Positions 42,054 through 50,941 of a DNA stretch of 64,000 bases are shown piece after piece. The stretch is from Crossiella equi (GTDB lineage: Bacteria > Actinomycetota > Actinomycetes > Mycobacteriales > Pseudonocardiaceae). The DNA lies in assembly GCF_017876755.1 (NCBI RefSeq), contig NZ_JAGIOO010000001.1, forward strand, positions 8,727,786 to 8,791,785, read 5' to 3'. A model generated the notes under the pieces. It made no database searches. It was not told the origin of the DNA and worked only from the letters and a program-made list of their open reading frames with translations. The first letter of the stretch is position 1. Every line of letters starts with the position of its first letter. Made by a program: the position numbers and the translations under genes.

Positions 42054-43040
42054 TCACTCAAATGAGTGATCGAATGTCGTGTTCCGGTCCACGTTCGGCG
42101 GCGGCAGGGCACGGGCGGTGCGCCGGACCAGCGCGCGCAGCCACCGGTGCGCCGGGTAGTTCTCCAGCCGGGGGTGCCAGACCATGAAGCAGCGCAACGG
42201 GGCCAGCGTCACCGGCGGCGGGAACCCGCACAGCCCGTGCTCGGCCACCAGCCGGGTGCCGAGCCTGGCGGGCACGGTGGCGATCAGCTCGGTCCCGCGC
42301 ACCACGTGCGGCACCGACCCGAAGTACGGCACGCGCGCGGCCACCCGCCGGTTGGCGTACAGCCGCGGGACCACCGGCGCCGGGCTGGGCACGCCGTGCG
42401 GGAACCCCACCGCCACGTGCGGGTACCGGTAGAAGGCGGCCAGGTCCAGGCCGCGCCCGGCCGCCGGGTGCGCGGGGTCGACCAGGCACAGGTGGCCGTC
42501 GTCGAAGAGGTGCTCGCTGGCCAGCGGCGGGTCCGCGGCGGCGGCGGCGACCAGCAGGTCCAGCACACCGCGTTCGACCGCGCCGGTCACCCCGTCGTAC
42601 CAGGCGGAGAAGTCCACCACGCTGTTCGGCGCCTCGTGCGGGGCCACGGTGAACAGGCCCTCGGCGAGCACGGCCAGCGCGTAGTCGGTACCGGCGACGC
42701 GGAAGGTCTCGCCGCTGGTGGCCGGGTCGAACTCGCTCGCGCCGAGCAGGCTGGTCAGCTGCGGCACCACCTGGGCCAGCTCGTGCCGCAGCCGGGCCGC
42801 ACGCGGGGTCAGCTCGTAGCCCTCGCGCGAGCGCACCAGCAGCTCGTCGGCGAAGACCTCCCGCAGCCGCTGCAACGCCCGGCTCATCGCGGGCTGGCTC
42901 ATGGCCAGGCGCGCGGCGGCCCGGGACACGTGGCACTCCTCCAGCAGTGCCTGCAACGGCACCAGCAGGTTGAGGTCAACCTCCTGCAACCGCCGCAGGT
43001 GCCGGGCGGCCGGAGTGGGTGACGCGCGTTCCGTTCTCAT
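42054..43040 (-). CDS. LysR-family regulator
   Basis: 328 residues. HTH at about 20-55 (VDLNLLVPLQALLEECHVSR, AAARLAMSQPAMSRALQRLR) and a NodD-like effector domain (ELLVRSREGYELTPRA, PVVPRLYANRRVAARVP). It lies directly downstream (24 bases) of the five-gene operon and on the same strand, so it could be co-transcribed with it or have its own promoter at 43041-43064. No divergent target, unusual for LysR. Confidence 0.88.
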   Translation of the reverse strand: MRTERASPTPAARHLRRLQEVDLNLLVPLQALLEECHVSRAAARLAMSQPAMSRALQRLREVFADELLVRSREGYELTPRAARLRHELAQVVPQLTSLLGASEFDPATSGETFRVAGTDYALAVLAEGLFTVAPHEAPNSVVDFSAWYDGVTGAVERGVLDLLVAAAAADPPLASEHLFDDGHLCLVDPAHPAAGRGLDLAAFYRYPHVAVGFPHGVPSPAPVVPRLYANRRVAARVPYFGSVPHVVRGTELIATVPARLGTRLVAEHGLCGFPPPVTLAPLRCFMVWHPRLENYPAHRWLRALVRRTARALPPPNVDRNTTFDHSFE

Positions 43041-43064: not shown

Positions 43065-44063
43065 TCAGGTGGTGACCAGGACGGTTCCGGTGTACTGGCC
43101 CGCCAGCAGCCCGGCCAGCGCCCGTGGTGCCTGGTCAAGGCCGGGCAGGGTGGTGTGGGGGAAGGAAATCGTGCCCTCGCGCAACGCGGTGCCGAAGGCC
43201 AGTTCCCAGTCCGGCAGCTCGTGCCGGTGGTGTGCGGTGGTCACGCCCCGGAGGCTGACCTCGCGGGAGAACAGCGCCAGCGCGTCGGTGGTGAACGGCG
43301 CGGTGGTCCCGCCCCGGGTCTGGCTGGCCAGCGCGCCGATGAGCACGTACCGGGACAGCGGCCGGGCCAGCCGCAACGCCGCCTCCAGCTGCTCGCCGCC
43401 CACGGTGTCCACCACGACGTCCAGGCCCTCGGGCGCGGCCGTCCGCAGCCGCTCCTCGAACGGCCCGGTGCCCCGGACCAGGACCTCGTCGAAGCCCAGC
43501 TCAGCCACCAGGCGCTCGGCCTTCGCGGCGGAGCCGACCGAGCCGAGCACCCGGGCGGCACCGCACAGCCGCGCGAACTGCCCGGCGATCACGCCCACGC
43601 CCCCGGCCGCGCCGCTGACGAACACCACGTCGCCGGGCCGGACCGGGGCGATCCGGGTGACCGCGAGCCAGCCCGCGAAACCGGAGGACAGGCAGGCCAG
43701 CGGAAACTCGCCCAGCGCCTCGGACAGGCGGTGCGCGCGTCCGTCCACCACGGCGTACTCCCGCCAGCCCAGGCGGTGCTGCACCAGGTCGCCGGGGGCG
43801 AGCCCGGGCAGGTCGCTGGTGACCACCTCGCCGAGCGCGGGCCCGTCCAGCGGCAGCCCGACCTGGTAGGGCGGCATGGGCAGCCCGCTGTGCTCGGCCA
43901 GCCGGGTGCGGGTCTCCGCGCCCACCCGCATGGCCAGGTTGCGCACGAGCGCCTGCCCCGGTCCGGGCACGGGCAGCGGTGCCTCGACCAGCTCCAGGCA
44001 GTCCGGCCGGTACTCGCCCTCCGGACGGTGCCGCAGCCGGACCTCCCGATGACTGTTGGTCAT
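43065..44063 (-). CDS. Zinc-independent MDR-family NADPH oxidoreductase
   Basis: 332 residues. The MDR Rossmann motif is VSGAAGGVGVIAGQFARLCG near residues 150-170, followed by VLGSVGSAAKAERLVAELGF and DVVVDTVGGEQLEAALR, the quinone-reductase/PTGR-like order without structural Cys ligands. Such enzymes reduce an alpha-beta double bond of an enone or similar. Its ATG overlaps the UbiA stop by 4 bases. In this operon a reductase that saturates a butenolide-like ring or prenyl enone is plausible, but not proven. Confidence 0.83.
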   Translation of the reverse strand: MTNSHREVRLRHRPEGEYRPDCLELVEAPLPVPGPGQALVRNLAMRVGAETRTRLAEHSGLPMPPYQVGLPLDGPALGEVVTSDLPGLAPGDLVQHRLGWREYAVVDGRAHRLSEALGEFPLACLSSGFAGWLAVTRIAPVRPGDVVFVSGAAGGVGVIAGQFARLCGAARVLGSVGSAAKAERLVAELGFDEVLVRGTGPFEERLRTAAPEGLDVVVDTVGGEQLEAALRLARPLSRYVLIGALASQTRGGTTAPFTTDALALFSREVSLRGVTTAHHRHELPDWELAFGTALREGTISFPHTTLPGLDQAPRALAGLLAGQYTGTVLVTT

Positions 44064-45016
44064 GCCAGGAACCGTACGTCGAGCACCGCGGCCGCCGCGA
44101 CAGCCGTGAGCACGTAGGTCCAGGCCAGGTAGCCCATGGCCGGGCCGGGCGGCCAGCCGGGACGGCGCAGCGCGACCAGCTCCTCGGCCCCGCGCCAGAC
44201 CAGGCCGAGCGGGGCCAGCGGCAGCCACGCGCCGAAGGCCGCCACCCCGGAGACCTCCCAGGGCCGCACGAGGACCAGCAGGAGCAGCGCCGCGGCCAGC
44301 GGGAAGCCCGCCGCCACCCAGGCCGAACCCCGGAAGCCGAGCAGGTTGGAGTAGAACTGCGCGCCGGGCACGACCTCGCGCCGGGTCTTGCGCGCGAACT
44401 CGAAGTGCAGGAACACCCCCGCGCACAGCAGCAGCGGCAGCAGCAGCCGCGCCTGGAAGGCCAGGCCGGAGGCCTCCAGGTAGGCGAGCAGGATGTGCGT
44501 GCCGATGATCACCTGCACGAAGTAGCTGACCCACAGGTTGGTGAACGTGCTGTCCCGGAACCTCGGCGAGACCCGCTCCAGCAGCACCAGGAACAGCACA
44601 TAGGCCAGCACCACCAGGAACAGCCCGGCCAGCGCCGGCGAGCGCCACAGGGCCAGCCCGCCGCCGAGCACGGTGATCGCGGCCATGGCCACGCGCAGGT
44701 CGGCCACCCCGATCGCACCGCGCGGCAGCGGCCGGTCCGGGTTGTGCACCCGGTCGTACTCCAGGTCCTTCTGCTCGTCGACCACGCGGATGAACACCAG
44801 CGCCAGCCACACCAGCGCCATCTCCACCACGGTGTGCGTGCCCACCACCCACGGTCCGCGCGCCGGGTCCAGCAGCGCGACCGCGGCCTGCAGCGCCACC
44901 ACCCAGACCACCGCGTAGGTCAGGTAGATCTTGTTCGGGGCGCGTTCGCCGAGGAAGGCGAGCAGGCGGCTGCCTCGGGTGCCCGGCAGCGTCGGGGGCA
45001 GGGTGTCAGTGCTCAT
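44060..45016 (-). CDS. UbiA-type prenyltransferase
   Basis: 318 residues from ATG 45016. Predicted about eight membrane segments. The acidic motif is RVVDEQKDLEYDRVHNPDRP (D80, D84, D88 then DRPLPRG), like the Mg-diphosphate site of UbiA enzymes, and the second acidic site near EFARKTRREV. UbiA enzymes move a prenyl chain from diphosphate to an aromatic or sugar acceptor in the membrane. Its start overlaps the end of the PEP-synthase-like gene by 11 bases. Acceptor unknown. Confidence 0.85.
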   Translation of the reverse strand: MSTDTLPPTLPGTRGSRLLAFLGERAPNKIYLTYAVVWVVALQAAVALLDPARGPWVVGTHTVVEMALVWLALVFIRVVDEQKDLEYDRVHNPDRPLPRGAIGVADLRVAMAAITVLGGGLALWRSPALAGLFLVVLAYVLFLVLLERVSPRFRDSTFTNLWVSYFVQVIIGTHILLAYLEASGLAFQARLLLPLLLCAGVFLHFEFARKTRREVVPGAQFYSNLLGFRGSAWVAAGFPLAAALLLLVLVRPWEVSGVAAFGAWLPLAPLGLVWRGAEELVALRRPGWPPGPAMGYLAWTYVLTAVAAAAVLDVRFLA

Positions 45017-47663
45017 GTGCGGTCTCCGCGAGGATGGTGACGGTGCCCGCCGCGCCGTCCAGTTCGACCTGGGCACCGTCGGCGATGGCGGTGGTCGCGC
45101 CCGGGACGGCGACCACGGTGGGGATGCGGAACTTGCGGCCGGTGATCGCGGTGTGCGACAGCAGCGTGCCGCGCTCCACGACGATGCCCTTGGCGGACAG
45201 CATCAGGAACAGCCAGCCCGGGTCGGTCTCCCGGGCCACCAGCACGAGGTCCTCGGTGGGCGGCAGCGGCTGGTGCGGGTCCACCACGACCCGGGCGGTA
45301 CCGCGCACCCGGCCGCTGCTGGAGCCCAGGCCGCGCAGCGGACCGTCGGCGTCGCCGTGGGTCTCCTCACCGGGCAGCTGGTCCGGGACCACGCCCACGG
45401 TGGCGAAGTTCATCGGCAGCAGCGGGCCCCCGGCCGCGTGCTCAGCGCGGCGCAGCCGGGACAGCGCGAGCAGGTCGCGGGTGACACCGGTACCGTCGTA
45501 GAAGGACAGGATCTCGTCGTGGGTGAGGTGCACGACGTCGTCCGGGGAGTCCAGCAGGCCGCGCCCGGCCAGGTCGGCGCCCAGGCGGCGGAACACCGCG
45601 CGGCCGAAGCCGTAGATCTCGGCGCGCGCGTACCGGGTGTTCTCGCGGATGTCGATGTACTTGCGCTGCTTGTCCAGCAGGAACCGCAGCACCGCGCGGC
45701 GCACCGGCTGTCCGGCCAGGTGCTTGGCCAGCTCGGCCTCGGCGGTGCGGCGGGTCTGGGCCTCGCGCCTGCGCAGCTCGCGTTCGGTCAGCTCGCCCTT
45801 GGCGTAGTCCCCGGCCAGTCGCAGCAGTTGCCAGGGCTGTTCGCGCGGGGTGCGCACCTCCAGCTTGAGCTCCTGGAGGCCGCGATCGCCGTGCTGCTGC
45901 GCGTGGGCCAGGATGCGGCGGGGGAGCTCGGTCCCGAACTCGCCGCGCGCCAGCCGTGCCCACACCTGTTCGACCGGTTCGGCGGCCAGCGCCGCCAGCA
46001 GCTTCTTGTCCTCGCGCACCTGTTCGGCGATGCCCACCAGGGACAGCAGGATGTCGGTGCTGCGGTTGCCCCCGCCGCCGCACAGCAGGTCGCTGTGCAG
46101 GCCGGTGTCGGCCCGCGGCACCCACCTGGCCAGCAGCGCCATCGCACCGGACTCCGCCAGCTGCAACAGCACGTCGTTGACCAGCGTGTAGCCCCACTGC
46201 TCGCCGACCTCGGTCCACAGCGACCGCATCAGGTGCGTCAGCTCCAGCGGGTCGGCGCCCTCCAGCTTCGCGCGGTGCGCGCCGATCGTGCGGTCCCACC
46301 AGCGGCCGAAGCGCCGGGCGGAGGGCACGTGCCTGCGCCACAACGACAGCAGACGCAGTGCACCCGGCAGGGCACGACGGGAACGCACCGGGTCAGGGTG
46401 CAGGTCGTGCACGGACGGGGACATGCCCATCATGCGCTGGAAGCTGTGCCGCCACAGCGGGAAGGTCTCCGAGAGCCGGTGCAGCCGGTACCAGGTGCTC
46501 AGCGAGTAGTACACGCGCCCGTGCAGCAGGCCGAGCATGCCGCGCAGGTCGTCCTCGTGCCGGTCCACGGTGGACATCGGCACGCCGAGCTTGCGGTAGA
46601 AGTCGCGGAAGTCCTCGCGGTAGAACCGCTGCGCGAAGGTGTAGGTGAGCGCGGTGGTGGTGCCCGGGTAGCTCTCGGTGATGTTGGCGTTGCTCCACAG
46701 CCGCTGGCGTGCCAGGTCCAGCACGACCGGCCGGGCCTGCAACACGTGCAGCTTCCCGTCGGTGGTGAAGGTGCCCTCGATGTCCTGGCCGGGCCCGAAC
46801 AGCCGCTCCACGCGGTCGCCGAGCGCCAGGACCTCCTGGACCTGCCCGGGCGAGAGCGCGGGCGCCTCGCGCTCGTCGGCGCGGACCGGCAGCAGCACCG
46901 GACCGGCGGCCGGGCGGACCGGGTCGAGGTCCATGCGCAGGTCCTTGTGCGCGGTGACCGTGCGCACCGGCTGGCCGTCCCGGGGCGCGAAGTGGTGGTC
47001 CAGGGGCACCTTCTCCTGCACCACGCCCTCGCCGATGCCGAGCCCGGCCGCGATCACGCGGTCCCGGCTGCCGGTGATGGGGTCGCAGGTGAACAGCACG
47101 AACGAGCGCTGCCCGAAGGCCATGCGCTGCACGCCGACGCCGACCTCGACCTCGGCCAGCCCGTCACCCCGGGCGGCGCGGTAGAGCAGGGCCTGGGTGC
47201 CGAAACCGGAGGCCCAGCAGCGGCGCACCGCGTCCAGCAGCCGGTCCCGGGTGACGTAGAGCAGGCTTTCGCTGATCCCGGCGAAGGCGTCGGTGGCCGA
47301 GTCCTCGCTGATCATCGAGGACCGCACGGACACCATCGCCTCGGCGCCGAAGCTGCGGTCGAACTCCCGGTACAGCGCGGCCAGCGCGTCCGGGGGCACC
47401 GCTGCCTCGTGCACGATGCGCCGCAACAGCGCCGAACCCTCGGCCAGTGAGGTGGCGTCGGTGGTGTCCAGCTTGTCCAGCACCCGGTCCACCTCGTCCC
47501 GGTGCGCGGCGAGCACGGTGGTGAACAGGCTGGCGGGCAGGCAGAAGAAGCGCGGTACGGGCAGCCCGGCGGCGGCCATGTCGGCCTGGCGGGCGAACTT
47601 GCGGCCCACCTCGCTTTCGTCGAGCAGGGCGCGGCCGGTGAGGATGTGCGGCACGGCGGTCAC
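45006..47663 (-). CDS. PEP-synthase/PigC/Rph-like phosphotransferase
   Basis: 885 residues from GTG 47663, which overlaps the previous stop by 4 bases; the longer frame to 48164 is a shadow. The N-terminal ATP-binding domain has VSVRSSMISEDSATDAFAGI (about 105-125) and RVIAAGLGIGEGVV, then GTFTTDGKLHVLQARPVV. A central about 430-residue helical domain follows. The C-terminal swivel carries the phosphate-carrier His837 in LLSHTAITGRKFRIPTVV. This three-domain order is that of PEP synthase relatives such as rifampin phosphotransferase (Rph) and the prodiginine-condensing enzyme PigC/RedH (about 888 aa). It may activate or phosphorylate a pathway intermediate bound by the middle domain. Confidence 0.83.
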   Translation of the reverse strand: MTAVPHILTGRALLDESEVGRKFARQADMAAAGLPVPRFFCLPASLFTTVLAAHRDEVDRVLDKLDTTDATSLAEGSALLRRIVHEAAVPPDALAALYREFDRSFGAEAMVSVRSSMISEDSATDAFAGISESLLYVTRDRLLDAVRRCWASGFGTQALLYRAARGDGLAEVEVGVGVQRMAFGQRSFVLFTCDPITGSRDRVIAAGLGIGEGVVQEKVPLDHHFAPRDGQPVRTVTAHKDLRMDLDPVRPAAGPVLLPVRADEREAPALSPGQVQEVLALGDRVERLFGPGQDIEGTFTTDGKLHVLQARPVVLDLARQRLWSNANITESYPGTTTALTYTFAQRFYREDFRDFYRKLGVPMSTVDRHEDDLRGMLGLLHGRVYYSLSTWYRLHRLSETFPLWRHSFQRMMGMSPSVHDLHPDPVRSRRALPGALRLLSLWRRHVPSARRFGRWWDRTIGAHRAKLEGADPLELTHLMRSLWTEVGEQWGYTLVNDVLLQLAESGAMALLARWVPRADTGLHSDLLCGGGGNRSTDILLSLVGIAEQVREDKKLLAALAAEPVEQVWARLARGEFGTELPRRILAHAQQHGDRGLQELKLEVRTPREQPWQLLRLAGDYAKGELTERELRRREAQTRRTAEAELAKHLAGQPVRRAVLRFLLDKQRKYIDIRENTRYARAEIYGFGRAVFRRLGADLAGRGLLDSPDDVVHLTHDEILSFYDGTGVTRDLLALSRLRRAEHAAGGPLLPMNFATVGVVPDQLPGEETHGDADGPLRGLGSSSGRVRGTARVVVDPHQPLPPTEDLVLVARETDPGWLFLMLSAKGIVVERGTLLSHTAITGRKFRIPTVVAVPGATTAIADGAQVELDGAAGTVTILAETAHEH

Positions 47664-48310
47664 CAGATCCCGGGGACGAGCCTGCGGTGGCTGTTCGCGT
47701 AGTCCTGGTACCCGGGCAGGGTGAGCAGCACGCGCTCCTCCACCACGATGCGCATGAGCATGGTCGGGATCAGGAGCACGACGAGCGCGGCCGCGCTGGC
47801 GGTGTTGAGGAAGAACAGCACGAACACCGCGTTGGCCGCGCCCATGCCGAGGTAGGCGGGGTGGCGCACCAGCCGGTACGGGCCGCTGGTGACGACCTCG
47901 TGGTCGTCCAGGGCGCGCACGCGGTGGGAGTAGAAGCGGCCGAGCGTGCGGATGGCGACCAGGCGCAGGCCGACCGCGGCGGCGAAGAGCACCGGCAGCG
48001 CGGCCATCCACGGCTGGTACTCCGTCCAGTCCGAGGGCAGCACGCACGCGGTGACCACGACCGCGACGCGGGCCAGGCCGTAGGCGTAGACGGTGCCGCG
48101 GTCGGACTCGGCGTTGGTGCTGGTGGAGCTTCGCACCGAGGTGAGCAGCTCGGCGGCCAGCCACAGCAGGTGCAGCGTGGCCAGCACGGTGCCGACGACG
48201 GCCAGCGGGTCGGGCCAGTTGAGCAGGCCGCGCACGATCGCGTACAGCGAGGCCAGGGTGGTGGAGCCGACGACGAACAGGGGGAACTTGCGCAGCAGCC
48301 AGGAGGTCAC
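47660..48310 (-). CDS. Isoprenylcysteine methyltransferase-like membrane protein
   Basis: 216 residues, several membrane helices. The ICMT signature is GPYRLVRHPAYLGMGAANAV followed by EERVLLTLPGYQDYANSHRR (about 145-210), with SAM-binding residues near the RHP and EE sites. Family members methylate small molecules at carboxyl or hydroxyl groups at the membrane, often lipids or terpenoids. GTG start overlaps the AfsA-like stop by 4 bases (48307-48310), and its stop overlaps the next gene, so all are tightly coupled. Confidence 0.83.
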   Translation of the reverse strand: MTSWLLRKFPLFVVGSTTLASLYAIVRGLLNWPDPLAVVGTVLATLHLLWLAAELLTSVRSSTSTNAESDRGTVYAYGLARVAVVVTACVLPSDWTEYQPWMAALPVLFAAAVGLRLVAIRTLGRFYSHRVRALDDHEVVTSGPYRLVRHPAYLGMGAANAVFVLFFLNTASAAALVVLLIPTMLMRIVVEERVLLTLPGYQDYANSHRRLVPGIW

Positions 48311-49083
48311 CGGGCCGCTCCGTCCACCGCGGCGGCCGGGGTGAACCGCCCGCGCAGCGCGGCCATCGTCTTGTCCGCGGCCCGGGTCTCCAGGTGCTCG
48401 GCGGTCTCGGTGGGCAGGATGAGCATCTCCATCGAGCCGACCGCGCCCACCTCCCCGGCCTGGGTGAACTCGCAGGTACCGGCGAAGAGCAGGCCGGTCT
48501 CGCGCTTGCGGGTCACCGTGTCCAGCCGGTAGACGAGGTCGGTCCGCAGCGGCAGCAGGAACCTGGTGAACCGCGTGGACTGGGAGTTGATGATGAACCG
48601 GGTCGGGCCCCGGTGGCCGACCTCCTCCGGGTAGAGGTGCTCGCCGACCGCGAGGGTCATCTGCCGGATGGCCTCGATGAGCACCATGCCGGACAGGTGC
48701 GTGCCGGTGGTGTGGTCCAGCAGCAGCTCGTTGCGGTTGGACAGCCGCAGCGTGGCCTCGTACACCCCCGGGCCGCCGACGCGGAAGCCCGCCAGCAGGA
48801 TGTTGTCCGGGTTGTGCTTGTGCACCTCGGGCCGTCCGGCCAGGCCGGGGGTCTCCGGGTCGGCCAGGCGGTGGGTGGACAGGCCGTGCAGCGCCAGCTC
48901 CGCGCGCAGCAGGTCGCGCTCCTGCGCCCCGATGCCCTGGGCGGGCACGAAGCGCACGTCCTCGTCGCGGTGGGCGCCCAGCCGCAGCTCGCGCAGCAGC
49001 TCCGAGAGCCCGATCACATCGGGCCGCGGCGGGCCGCCGTACAGGCGATCACCGATGACGAAGATGACCTGTTCTTTGTGCAC
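48307..49083 (-). CDS. AfsA-type hot-dog domain protein
   Basis: 258 residues. The AfsA hot-dog segment is VHKHNPDNILLAGFRVGG then LDHTTGTHLSGMVLIEAI (about 85-135), followed by FTRFLLPLRTDLVYRLDTVT. AfsA makes gamma-butyrolactone-type signals by joining a beta-ketoacyl chain to dihydroxyacetone phosphate. Canonical AfsA has two such domains in about 300 residues; this has one clear copy and a distinct N-terminal about 80-residue segment. It heads the five-gene operon. May produce a signal or a lipid intermediate; the role is inferred from family and context. Confidence 0.8.
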   Translation of the reverse strand: MHKEQVIFVIGDRLYGGPPRPDVIGLSELLRELRLGAHRDEDVRFVPAQGIGAQERDLLRAELALHGLSTHRLADPETPGLAGRPEVHKHNPDNILLAGFRVGGPGVYEATLRLSNRNELLLDHTTGTHLSGMVLIEAIRQMTLAVGEHLYPEEVGHRGPTRFIINSQSTRFTRFLLPLRTDLVYRLDTVTRKRETGLLFAGTCEFTQAGEVGAVGSMEMLILPTETAEHLETRAADKTMAALRGRFTPAAAVDGAAR

Positions 49084-49745: not shown

Positions 49746-49846
49746 GGCTGGCTCCACCCCGGGAACGGGAGTGTGCTGGCGGGTGCGCGCGGCGCGGTCC
49801 CGGCAAGGTGGTGATCACCGAAACACCACCTGGAGAGGACCCGCAG

Positions 49847-50941
49847 ATGAAGCGCACCCTGGCGGCAACCATCACCGTCGGCCTGGCACTGGTGTGCACC
49901 GGTGCCGGCGCCGTGGCCGCACCCAAGGACCCGGTGCGCGCCAGCCTGGAGGGGTTGGTGCACAACGACAAGTTCCCGGCAGCACTGGCCACGGTGGACG
50001 GACGCCACCTGGTCGCCGGGCAGGCGCCGCGCAACGGCAAGGTGCGCATCGGCAGCAACACCAAGGCCTTCGTGGCCACCGCCGTGCTCCAGCTGGTCGG
50101 CGAGGGCAAGGTCAAGCTGGACGAGCCGATCGAGACCTACCTGCCGGGCCTGGTGCGCGGCGAGGGCATCGACGGGCGGAACATCACCGTGCGGCAGGTG
50201 CTCCAGCACACCAGCGGCCTGCCCAACTACACCAAGTACCTGGGCATCGAGGGCTTCGGTGAGGTGCGCGACCGCTACGTCTCGCCCCGGGAGACCCTGG
50301 ACGCGGGCTTGGCGCACCCGGCCGACTTCGCGCCCGGTACCCAGTGGTCCTACAGCAACACCGGCTACACCGTGGCGGGCCTGATCATCCAGAAGGTCAC
50401 CGGCCGCCCGGTGTCCGAAGTGGTCACCGAACGCGTGATCAAGAAGGCCGGGCTGCGTGACACCTACTGGCCGAACGTGGGCGAGCGCACGCTCCGGGGC
50501 ACGCACGCCCGGGGCTACGAGCGCAACGTGGCCAGCGACCCGGCCTCGGTGGTCGACGCCACCGTCATGGACGCGGGCTGGGGCTGGGCCGCGGGCGAGC
50601 TGGTCGGCACGCCCGAGGACCTCAACCGCTTCTACCGCGCGCTGCTGGGCGGCAAGCTGCTGCGCCCGGTCGAGCTGGCCGAGATGAAGCGCACCGTGCC
50701 CGCCCCGGGCCTGTTCGCGGGCGCCACGTACGGCCTGGGCCTGATGCGCGTCGAGCTGGGCTGCGGCAAGGTGATGTGGGGCCACGGCGGTGACATCCCC
50801 GGTTACGAGACCCGGGGCGGGGTCACCGAGGACGGGCGCGAGGCCGCGCTGGCGGTGACCGCGCTGCCCGGTACGTTCGGCGACGCGCAGACCGCGCACC
50901 AGCACGTGCTGGCCGCCGTGGAGACCATGCTCTGCCGGTGA
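49847..50941 (+). CDS. Secreted serine beta-lactamase-fold hydrolase (class C/DD-peptidase-like)
   Basis: 364 residues from ATG 49847 behind GGAGAGG. Signal peptide MKRTLAATITVGLALVCTGA. Catalytic SxxK in IGSNTKAF (Ser, Lys), YSN in SYSNTGYTVAGL, and the third motif HGG in WGHGGDIPGY. This is the DD-carboxypeptidase/class C beta-lactamase/esterase fold. Substrate could be peptidoglycan, a beta-lactam or an ester; sequence alone does not decide. Stands alone apart from the SnoaL-like gene. Confidence 0.87.
   Translation: MKRTLAATITVGLALVCTGAGAVAAPKDPVRASLEGLVHNDKFPAALATVDGRHLVAGQAPRNGKVRIGSNTKAFVATAVLQLVGEGKVKLDEPIETYLPGLVRGEGIDGRNITVRQVLQHTSGLPNYTKYLGIEGFGEVRDRYVSPRETLDAGLAHPADFAPGTQWSYSNTGYTVAGLIIQKVTGRPVSEVVTERVIKKAGLRDTYWPNVGERTLRGTHARGYERNVASDPASVVDATVMDAGWGWAAGELVGTPEDLNRFYRALLGGKLLRPVELAEMKRTVPAPGLFAGATYGLGLMRVELGCGKVMWGHGGDIPGYETRGGVTEDGREAALAVTALPGTFGDAQTAHQHVLAAVETMLCR

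What the first reader, a model, noticed from the sequence alone, without database searches (positions are those of the whole stretch)
43065..49083. Five overlapping genes: AfsA hot-dog, ICMT, PigC/Rph-like phosphotransferase, UbiA, MDR reductase
Every gene join in this leftward operon overlaps (4, 4, 11 and 4 bases), so the products are probably made together. Known parts: AfsA-type condensing chemistry, UbiA prenyl transfer, ICMT methylation, and a three-domain PEP-synthase-like enzyme like those used in PigC condensation or rifampin phosphorylation. I do not know a characterised pathway with this set. It suggests a small membrane-linked lipid or meroterpenoid, or a modified butyrolactone-like signal.
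Basis: partly seen in the sequence, partly recalled or inferred. Interest (0 to 1): 0.85.

Follow-up and report, generated by a model that had tools for sequence, protein, structure and literature searches.

The report
Salinipostin-like operon with methyltransferase swap
Five overlapping bacterial genes look like a variant of the pathway for salinipostins (natural lactone phosphate esters), with one methyltransferase where the fatty-tail genes would be, so they probably make a small methyl-capped phosphate ester.

Summary
The five overlapping genes are real. The same five families in the same order occur in three Streptomyces loci; AfsA-like, ICMT, PPDK-like and UbiA occur together in 30 of 31 ICMT-bearing loci, window included.

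The set has a known relative. That cluster makes salinipostin phosphotriesters (recalled; papers not held). Its tail genes (acyl-AMP ligase, DUF6001, ACP, thioester reductase, NDK-like) are absent here and ICMT is present. Of 120 UbiA loci, 31 have ICMT, 79 NDK-like plus thioester reductase, 10 neither, none both.

Best reading: a butyrolactone phosphotriester pathway whose third ester is methyl (cyclophostin-like), not fatty alkyl. This is inference: no product is known, the AfsA protein is divergent, the swap may be one old event, and six ICMT loci have a layout that suits a prenylation rival. New variant of a known kind.

The parts
48307..49083 (-). AfsA-like protein, 258 aa: one FabZ-like hot-dog domain (about 79-224) after a small N-terminal alpha/beta part
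47660..48310 (-). ICMT-family membrane methyltransferase, 216 aa; proposed O-methyltransferase of the phosphate
   Evidence: PF04140 62.5 bits; nearest solved sequence is an isoprenylcysteine methyltransferase, E 2.2e-5; RHPxY in 31 of 31
45006..47663 (-). PPDK-like ATP-dependent phosphotransferase, 885 aa: ATP-binding domain 17-313, central part, phosphohistidine domain 804-873
   Evidence: Pfam; nearest solved sequences 5hv2, 5fbs, 5hv1, named PEP synthase in the listing and recalled as rifampin phosphotransferases; SHTAI aligns with the THGAV of 5hv2; tree
44060..45016 (-). UbiA-fold membrane protein, 318 aa, with D80-x3-D84-x3-D88 and E206-x2-R209-K210 where UbiA proteins usually have a second Asp motif (recalled)
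   Evidence: conservation; fold
43065..44063 (-). MDR NADPH-dependent double-bond reductase, 332 aa; proposed butenolide C=C reductase
   Evidence: Pfam; nearest solved sequence is a Double Bond Reductase, 7e4d, E 7.2e-46
42054..43040 (-). LysR-type regulator 24 nt downstream of the MDR gene; possible sixth gene of the transcript, not seen in the three closest relatives

Best explanation
The operon is a compact relative of the salinipostin (spt) pathway that makes a small bicyclic butyrolactone phosphotriester capped with methyl, like cyclophostin, instead of a long alkyl chain, as in salinipostins and cyclipostins. Proposed steps, all inferred: (1) the AfsA-like hot-dog enzyme joins a short beta-ketoacyl thioester from primary metabolism to dihydroxyacetone phosphate, giving a butenolide phosphate; (2) the MDR reductase removes the ring double bond; (3) the PPDK-like enzyme, via a phosphohistidine and ATP -> AMP + Pi, activates the molecule, either as an enol phosphate (PEP-synthase-like chemistry) or by turning the lactone phosphate into a diphosphate; (4) the UbiA-fold protein binds the (di)phosphate at the membrane and closes the cyclic enol phosphate; (5) the ICMT-family enzyme methylates the last P-O(-) with SAM. 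SAM alkylation needs no phosphate activation, which would explain why the NDK-like kinase and the tail genes are missing together. Shown: gene families, order, conservation, module exclusivity in the loci examined, predicted folds of UbiA and AfsA-like. Inferred: every reaction and the product.
For: Nine-gene operon PPDK-AMP ligase-DUF6001-ACP-thioester reductase-NDK-UbiA-luciferase-like-AfsA in a genome with a 5,183,331-base contig (L221), with the same gene order in L222-L227 (the 270-296 aa reductase slot was Pfam-tested only in L221). Nine genes with AfsA last fits spt1-9 (recalled). The window shares PPDK (30% over 902, 270 bits), UbiA (34% over 282, 122 bits) and, weakly, AfsA (30% over 83, 36 bits) with L221. 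Module exclusivity in 120 loci: ICMT only 31, NDK-like plus thioester reductase 79, neither 10, both 0. In the UbiA tree the tail-type UbiAs lie on the same side of a 100/99 branch as the window, away from the P450-linked ICMT loci. D80, D84, D88, R95, E206, K210 are kept in 118 of 118 UbiAs of all types. The reductase slot is filled by unrelated folds: MDR, SDR, nitroreductase, luciferase-like. Cyclophostin is the 3-methoxy ester; cyclipostins have a lipophilic chain on the same core (passages of PMC6681047).
Against: No product is linked to any ICMT-type operon that I saw. The window's AfsA has one hot-dog domain instead of two and scores 31.1 of 200 bits for the ScbA/BarX equivalog. ICMT-type and tail-type PPDKs are only about 30% identical and form two clades on long branches; their kinship against three paralogs of the same genome has SH-aLRT 93 with long outgroups and a quick tree method, and one paralog is nearly as similar by identity (29% over 892). 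The exclusivity may reflect one old split, not many swaps. Six ICMT loci (L167, L168, L170, L172-L174) have extra genes and a P450 before UbiA; in the one tested (L170) an extra gene is polyprenyl-synthetase-like, which suits a prenyl-using UbiA. NDK-like relatives also occur with no UbiA nearby (L232, L233). I know of no ICMT-family phosphate methyltransferase. spt1-9 names and the S. tropica identity rest on recall.
Confidence: 0.5

Rival explanations
1. Prenylated butyrolactone or other meroterpenoid: UbiA transfers a prenyl group to an AfsA-made lactone, ICMT makes a methyl ester, the PPDK-like enzyme phosphorylates or ligates.
For: UbiA fold and D-x3-D-x3-D motif; L170 has a polyprenyl-synthetase-like gene between PPDK and UbiA, and five more loci share that layout by gene order; ICMT's classic substrates are prenylated (recalled).
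Against: No polyprenyl synthase among the window neighbours tested; flanking genes of most other loci were not annotated. The second motif is E-x2-R-K in 111 of 118 UbiAs; the seven that lost the Arg are the six loci of that layout plus L169, which is cut by a contig end. A related UbiA sits in the Salinispora-type nine-gene operon, whose salinipostin products have no prenyl group (recalled).
Confidence: 0.2
2. Ordinary gamma-butyrolactone hormone pathway (A-factor-like) with accessory tailoring and no phosphotriester.
For: An AfsA domain and a double-bond reductase are the two kinds of enzyme that A-factor synthesis needs (recalled).
Against: The genome has a separate AfsA with two domain matches. 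The window's AfsA fails the ScbA/BarX cut-off. PPDK, UbiA and ICMT have no role in that pathway as I know it, yet PPDK and UbiA are neighbours in 25 of 31 ICMT loci.
Confidence: 0.13
3. A PigC/RedH-like condensing system: the PPDK-like enzyme joins two carbon units and the other genes decorate the product.
For: Same domain layout as RedH/PigC, with matches of 288.8 and 236.3 bits.
Against: Far below those families' cut-offs (1350 and 1300); better score to model NF004881 (530.9, itself below its cut-off of 883), which the tail-type PPDK of L099 passes (1094.1); no pyrrole-type genes among the five.
Confidence: 0.07

Closest known systems
Salinipostin (spt1-9) cluster of Salinispora (Kudo 2020, Creamer 2021; both recalled and not held, the latter's title seen in a reference list)
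   Same: PPDK-like, UbiA, a reductase and AfsA in one overlapping operon
   Different: The window lacks acyl-AMP ligase, DUF6001, ACP, thioester reductase and NDK-like genes, and has ICMT; MDR instead of a luciferase-like protein; divergent one-domain AfsA
Cyclophostin / cyclipostins (PMC6681047, passages seen)
   Same: Predicted product type: bicyclic lactone enol phosphotriester, methyl against long-chain ester
   Different: No gene cluster for cyclophostin seen in the listings of my searches (one search listed 30 of 91 papers); the match is predicted only
A-factor / ScbA-BarX gamma-butyrolactone synthesis
   Same: AfsA hot-dog domain plus a double-bond reductase
   Different: One hot-dog instead of two, below the equivalog cut-off; three further enzymes
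Rifampin phosphotransferase Rph
   Same: ATP domain, central part, phosphohistidine domain in that order; nearest solved structures (their identity as Rph is recalled)
   Different: 263.4 of 999 bits; operon context does not look like resistance
Isoprenylcysteine carboxyl methyltransferase (ICMT)
   Same: Pfam family and RHPxY motif
   Different: 51.5 of 160 bits for the equivalog; predicted phosphate, not carboxylate, as acceptor

Membership tests
Salinipostin (spt) cluster | PPDK-like gene | tested here: met
   30% over 902 aa to the PPDK of L221, 270 bits
Salinipostin (spt) cluster | UbiA with D-x3-D-x3-D and E-x2-R-K | tested here: met
Salinipostin (spt) cluster | AfsA with two hot-dog domains | tested here: not met
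   one PF03756 stretch against two in L221; N-terminal part not a hot-dog in the model
Salinipostin (spt) cluster | Tail module: acyl-AMP ligase, DUF6001, ACP, thioester reductase, NDK-like | tested here: not met
   none in window 34001-58000
Salinipostin (spt) cluster | Phosphotriester product | not testable with these tools
   no product data
ScbA/BarX gamma-butyrolactone synthase | NCBIfam NF041195 cut-off 200 bits | tested here: not met
   31.1 bits
RedH / PigC ligases | NCBIfam cut-offs 1350 / 1300 bits | tested here: not met
   288.8 / 236.3 bits
Rph | NCBIfam NF041857 cut-off 999 bits | tested here: not met
   263.4 bits
Housekeeping PEP synthase | TIGR01418 cut-off 739.75 bits | tested here: not met
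   191.6 bits
ICMT superfamily | Pfam PF04140 cut-off 24 bits | tested here: met
   62.5 bits
UbiA superfamily | Pfam PF01040 cut-off 34.2 bits | tested here: not met
   19.6 bits
UbiA superfamily | UbiA fold | tested here: met
Cyclophostin pathway | Methyl phosphotriester product | not testable with these tools
   prediction only

The most novel reading that the evidence does not exclude
The operon is the first gene set recognised for methyl phosphotriester (cyclophostin-type) natural products. ICMT is a new kind of phosphate O-methyltransferase, and UbiA is a prenyltransferase fold turned to phosphate ring closure. Swapping one module, ICMT against fatty-alcohol genes plus an NDK-like kinase, decides between methyl and alkyl esters across actinomycetes and Pseudomonas.
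Probability: 0.42. Interest if true: 0.8.

Novelty: new variant of a known kind. Interest (0 to 1): 0.62.

Why it matters
How bacteria build phosphotriesters (natural organophosphates that inhibit serine hydrolases and acetylcholinesterase) is, as far as my limited searches show, not settled. The comparison here assigns a shared core (PPDK, UbiA, AfsA, reductase) and two alternative ester modules, so each step becomes a testable single-gene prediction, and it gives a genome-mining signature (AfsA-ICMT-PPDK-UbiA) for a little-explored set of operons.

Tried and rejected
Rejected: Rph resistance gene, housekeeping PEP synthase, and PigC/RedH ligase as identities of the 885-aa protein. Rejected: the operon as part of a larger cluster in the window; the neighbours tested are GH76, LysE-type translocator, beta-lactamase-family hydrolase, LysR, DUF6847, weak M16, TPR and SnoaL hits, or unassigned. 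Promoter/terminator scan: nothing above shuffles.

Led nowhere: the NDK-like profile over 394 genomes (247 with a match) mostly found short housekeeping-type NDK; the genus of G323 was the wrong group. Paper searches listed no cyclophostin gene cluster by title; some listings were cut (20 of 12,446, 30 of 91), and the library holds only open-licence papers, so this does not show that none is in print. VIA-align listed no structure over the AfsA N-terminal part; that part was not searched alone.

Two strong hits (G756, G760), its weak hits, and G356 were not fetched. One search kept 80 of 167 confirmed loci, so rarer layouts may be missing. The PPDK tree held 31 of 31 ICMT-type, 16 of 79 tail-type and 7 of 10 'neither' loci plus 3 paralogs; the UbiA tree 30 of 31, 18 of 79 and 10 of 10 (L057 left out for masked letters). 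Family labels come from clustering; Pfam was run only on the members named. The gene caller is a simple codon model of my own; starts may be off, and the PPDK called in L168 lacks the His motif.
Full report

Conservation. UbiA was sought in 200 genomes of the same family (11 with a match, own included; none of the 4 other same-genus genomes listed), 394 of the class (12, own included), 297 of one further family (23, some weak), 160 of one genus (11), and in named species genomes (80 of 167 confirmed loci kept). I called genes in 129 loci including the window, dropped six duplicates and three loci without a called UbiA, and kept 120. PPDK and UbiA are direct neighbours in 25 of the 31 ICMT-bearing loci. 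The exact five families in order occur in L053, L054 and L057 (Streptomyces); L056 (Parafrankia) and L076 and L111 (Pseudomonas) have AfsA-ICMT-PPDK-UbiA followed by a gene of a cluster whose L111 member is an SDR.

Link to salinipostin. A genus searched from G294 gave 11 genomes with a UbiA match, six of them of 5.2-5.9 Mb; one has a contig of 5,183,331 bases, the size I recall for Salinispora tropica CNB-440. Its locus L221 is nine overlapping or touching genes: PPDK-like, AMP-binding, DUF6001 (below cut-off, 20 of 25), ACP, thioester reductase-like, NDK-like, UbiA, luciferase-like, AfsA (the ACP by clustering). L222-L227 have the same order. Nine genes with the butyrolactone synthase last fits the spt1-9 cluster as I recall it; I could not read those papers.

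Module swap. Among 120 loci, 31 have ICMT, 79 have NDK-like plus thioester reductase, 10 have neither, none has both, within nine genes of UbiA. Of the 10, L090, L169, L171 and L231 lie at contig edges; L032, L041, L042, L228 and L229 form a third layout; L166 has AfsA-PPDK-UbiA-SDR. In the PPDK tree the ICMT loci and the 'neither' loci form one side and the tail type another (both 100, SH-aLRT), so this may be one old event. In the UbiA tree the tail type is nested among ICMT-type UbiAs. The two trees disagree on the history, but both place the window beside L053 and L054 (PPDK 99; UbiA 98/76).

Catalytic signs. UbiA keeps D80, D84, D88, P93, R95, E206 and K210 in 118 of 118; R209 in 111 of 118. 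The PPDK phosphohistidine motif is present in 108 of 109, and ICMT RHPxY in 31 of 31. The MDR protein is nearest to a solved double-bond reductase. Near UbiA in the 31 ICMT loci I found SDR in 10, MDR in 4 (one with a P450 of the other strand nearby), nitroreductase with P450 in 9, nitroreductase alone in 2, P450 alone in 6; the Salinispora-type operon has a luciferase-like protein.

AfsA. The window protein has a small alpha/beta N-terminal part and one FabZ-like hot-dog, with a D-H-x4-H-x2-G-M-x3-E-A-x-R-Q stretch like that of canonical AfsA's second domain (partly recalled). Seven of the ten ICMT-type AfsAs aligned carry a DHPxDHxP motif in the first half; the window, L056 and L057 do not. 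Whether the window's protein still condenses with dihydroxyacetone phosphate is untested.

Mechanism. The shared genes fit the lactone enol-phosphate core; the swapped genes fit the third ester on phosphorus. Cyclophostin (methoxy) and cyclipostins (lipophilic chain) share that core, and the review says that a common biosynthetic origin with A-factor-type lactones is possible (passages of PMC6681047). SAM methylation needs no activated phosphate, consistent with absence of the NDK-like kinase together with the tail genes. All reactions are inferred.

Against. Six ICMT loci have extra genes and a P450 between PPDK and UbiA; in L170, the one tested, these are polyprenyl-synthetase-like and a PucR-type regulator. 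Those loci lack R209, so their UbiA may differ in substrate, or the prenylation rival may hold more widely. NDK-like relatives occur without UbiA in L232 and L233. No chemistry is known to me for any ICMT-type locus.

Noticed in passing
L167, L168, L170, L172-L174: ICMT-type clusters with extra genes and a P450 between PPDK and UbiA; in L170 (the one tested) these are polyprenyl-synthetase-like and a PucR-type regulator. UbiA there has lost R209.
   Followed up: partly
L032, L041, L042, L228, L229: Third layout: PPDK-UbiA with AfsA, and in L042 a KASIII, ACP, DUF6182 and unassigned genes; no ICMT and no tail module.
   Followed up: partly
L076, L111 (Pseudomonas): ICMT-type operons in Pseudomonas, nested among actinomycete PPDKs and UbiAs in the trees: likely transfer between phyla.
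   Followed up: no
L034, L048, L055, L111, L165, L174, L230 AfsA proteins: A DHPxDHxP motif lies in the first half and VHRxxxEN-like in the second, the reverse of canonical AfsA as I recall it: a possible domain-order swap.
   Followed up: partly
window 49808-50941: Beta-lactamase-family serine hydrolase with a signal-peptide-like start, upstream and divergent; serine hydrolases are targets of the predicted product class. Not checked for conservation.
   Followed up: no
L053:10050-10574, L054:11951-12496: NUDIX-domain gene directly after the MDR gene in two of the three closest Streptomyces operons.
   Followed up: no
L237:4262-5173 (own genome): A separate AfsA with two domain matches elsewhere in the same genome.
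   Followed up: partly
L232, L233: Genes related to the NDK-like protein of the tail module, without UbiA nearby.
   Followed up: no
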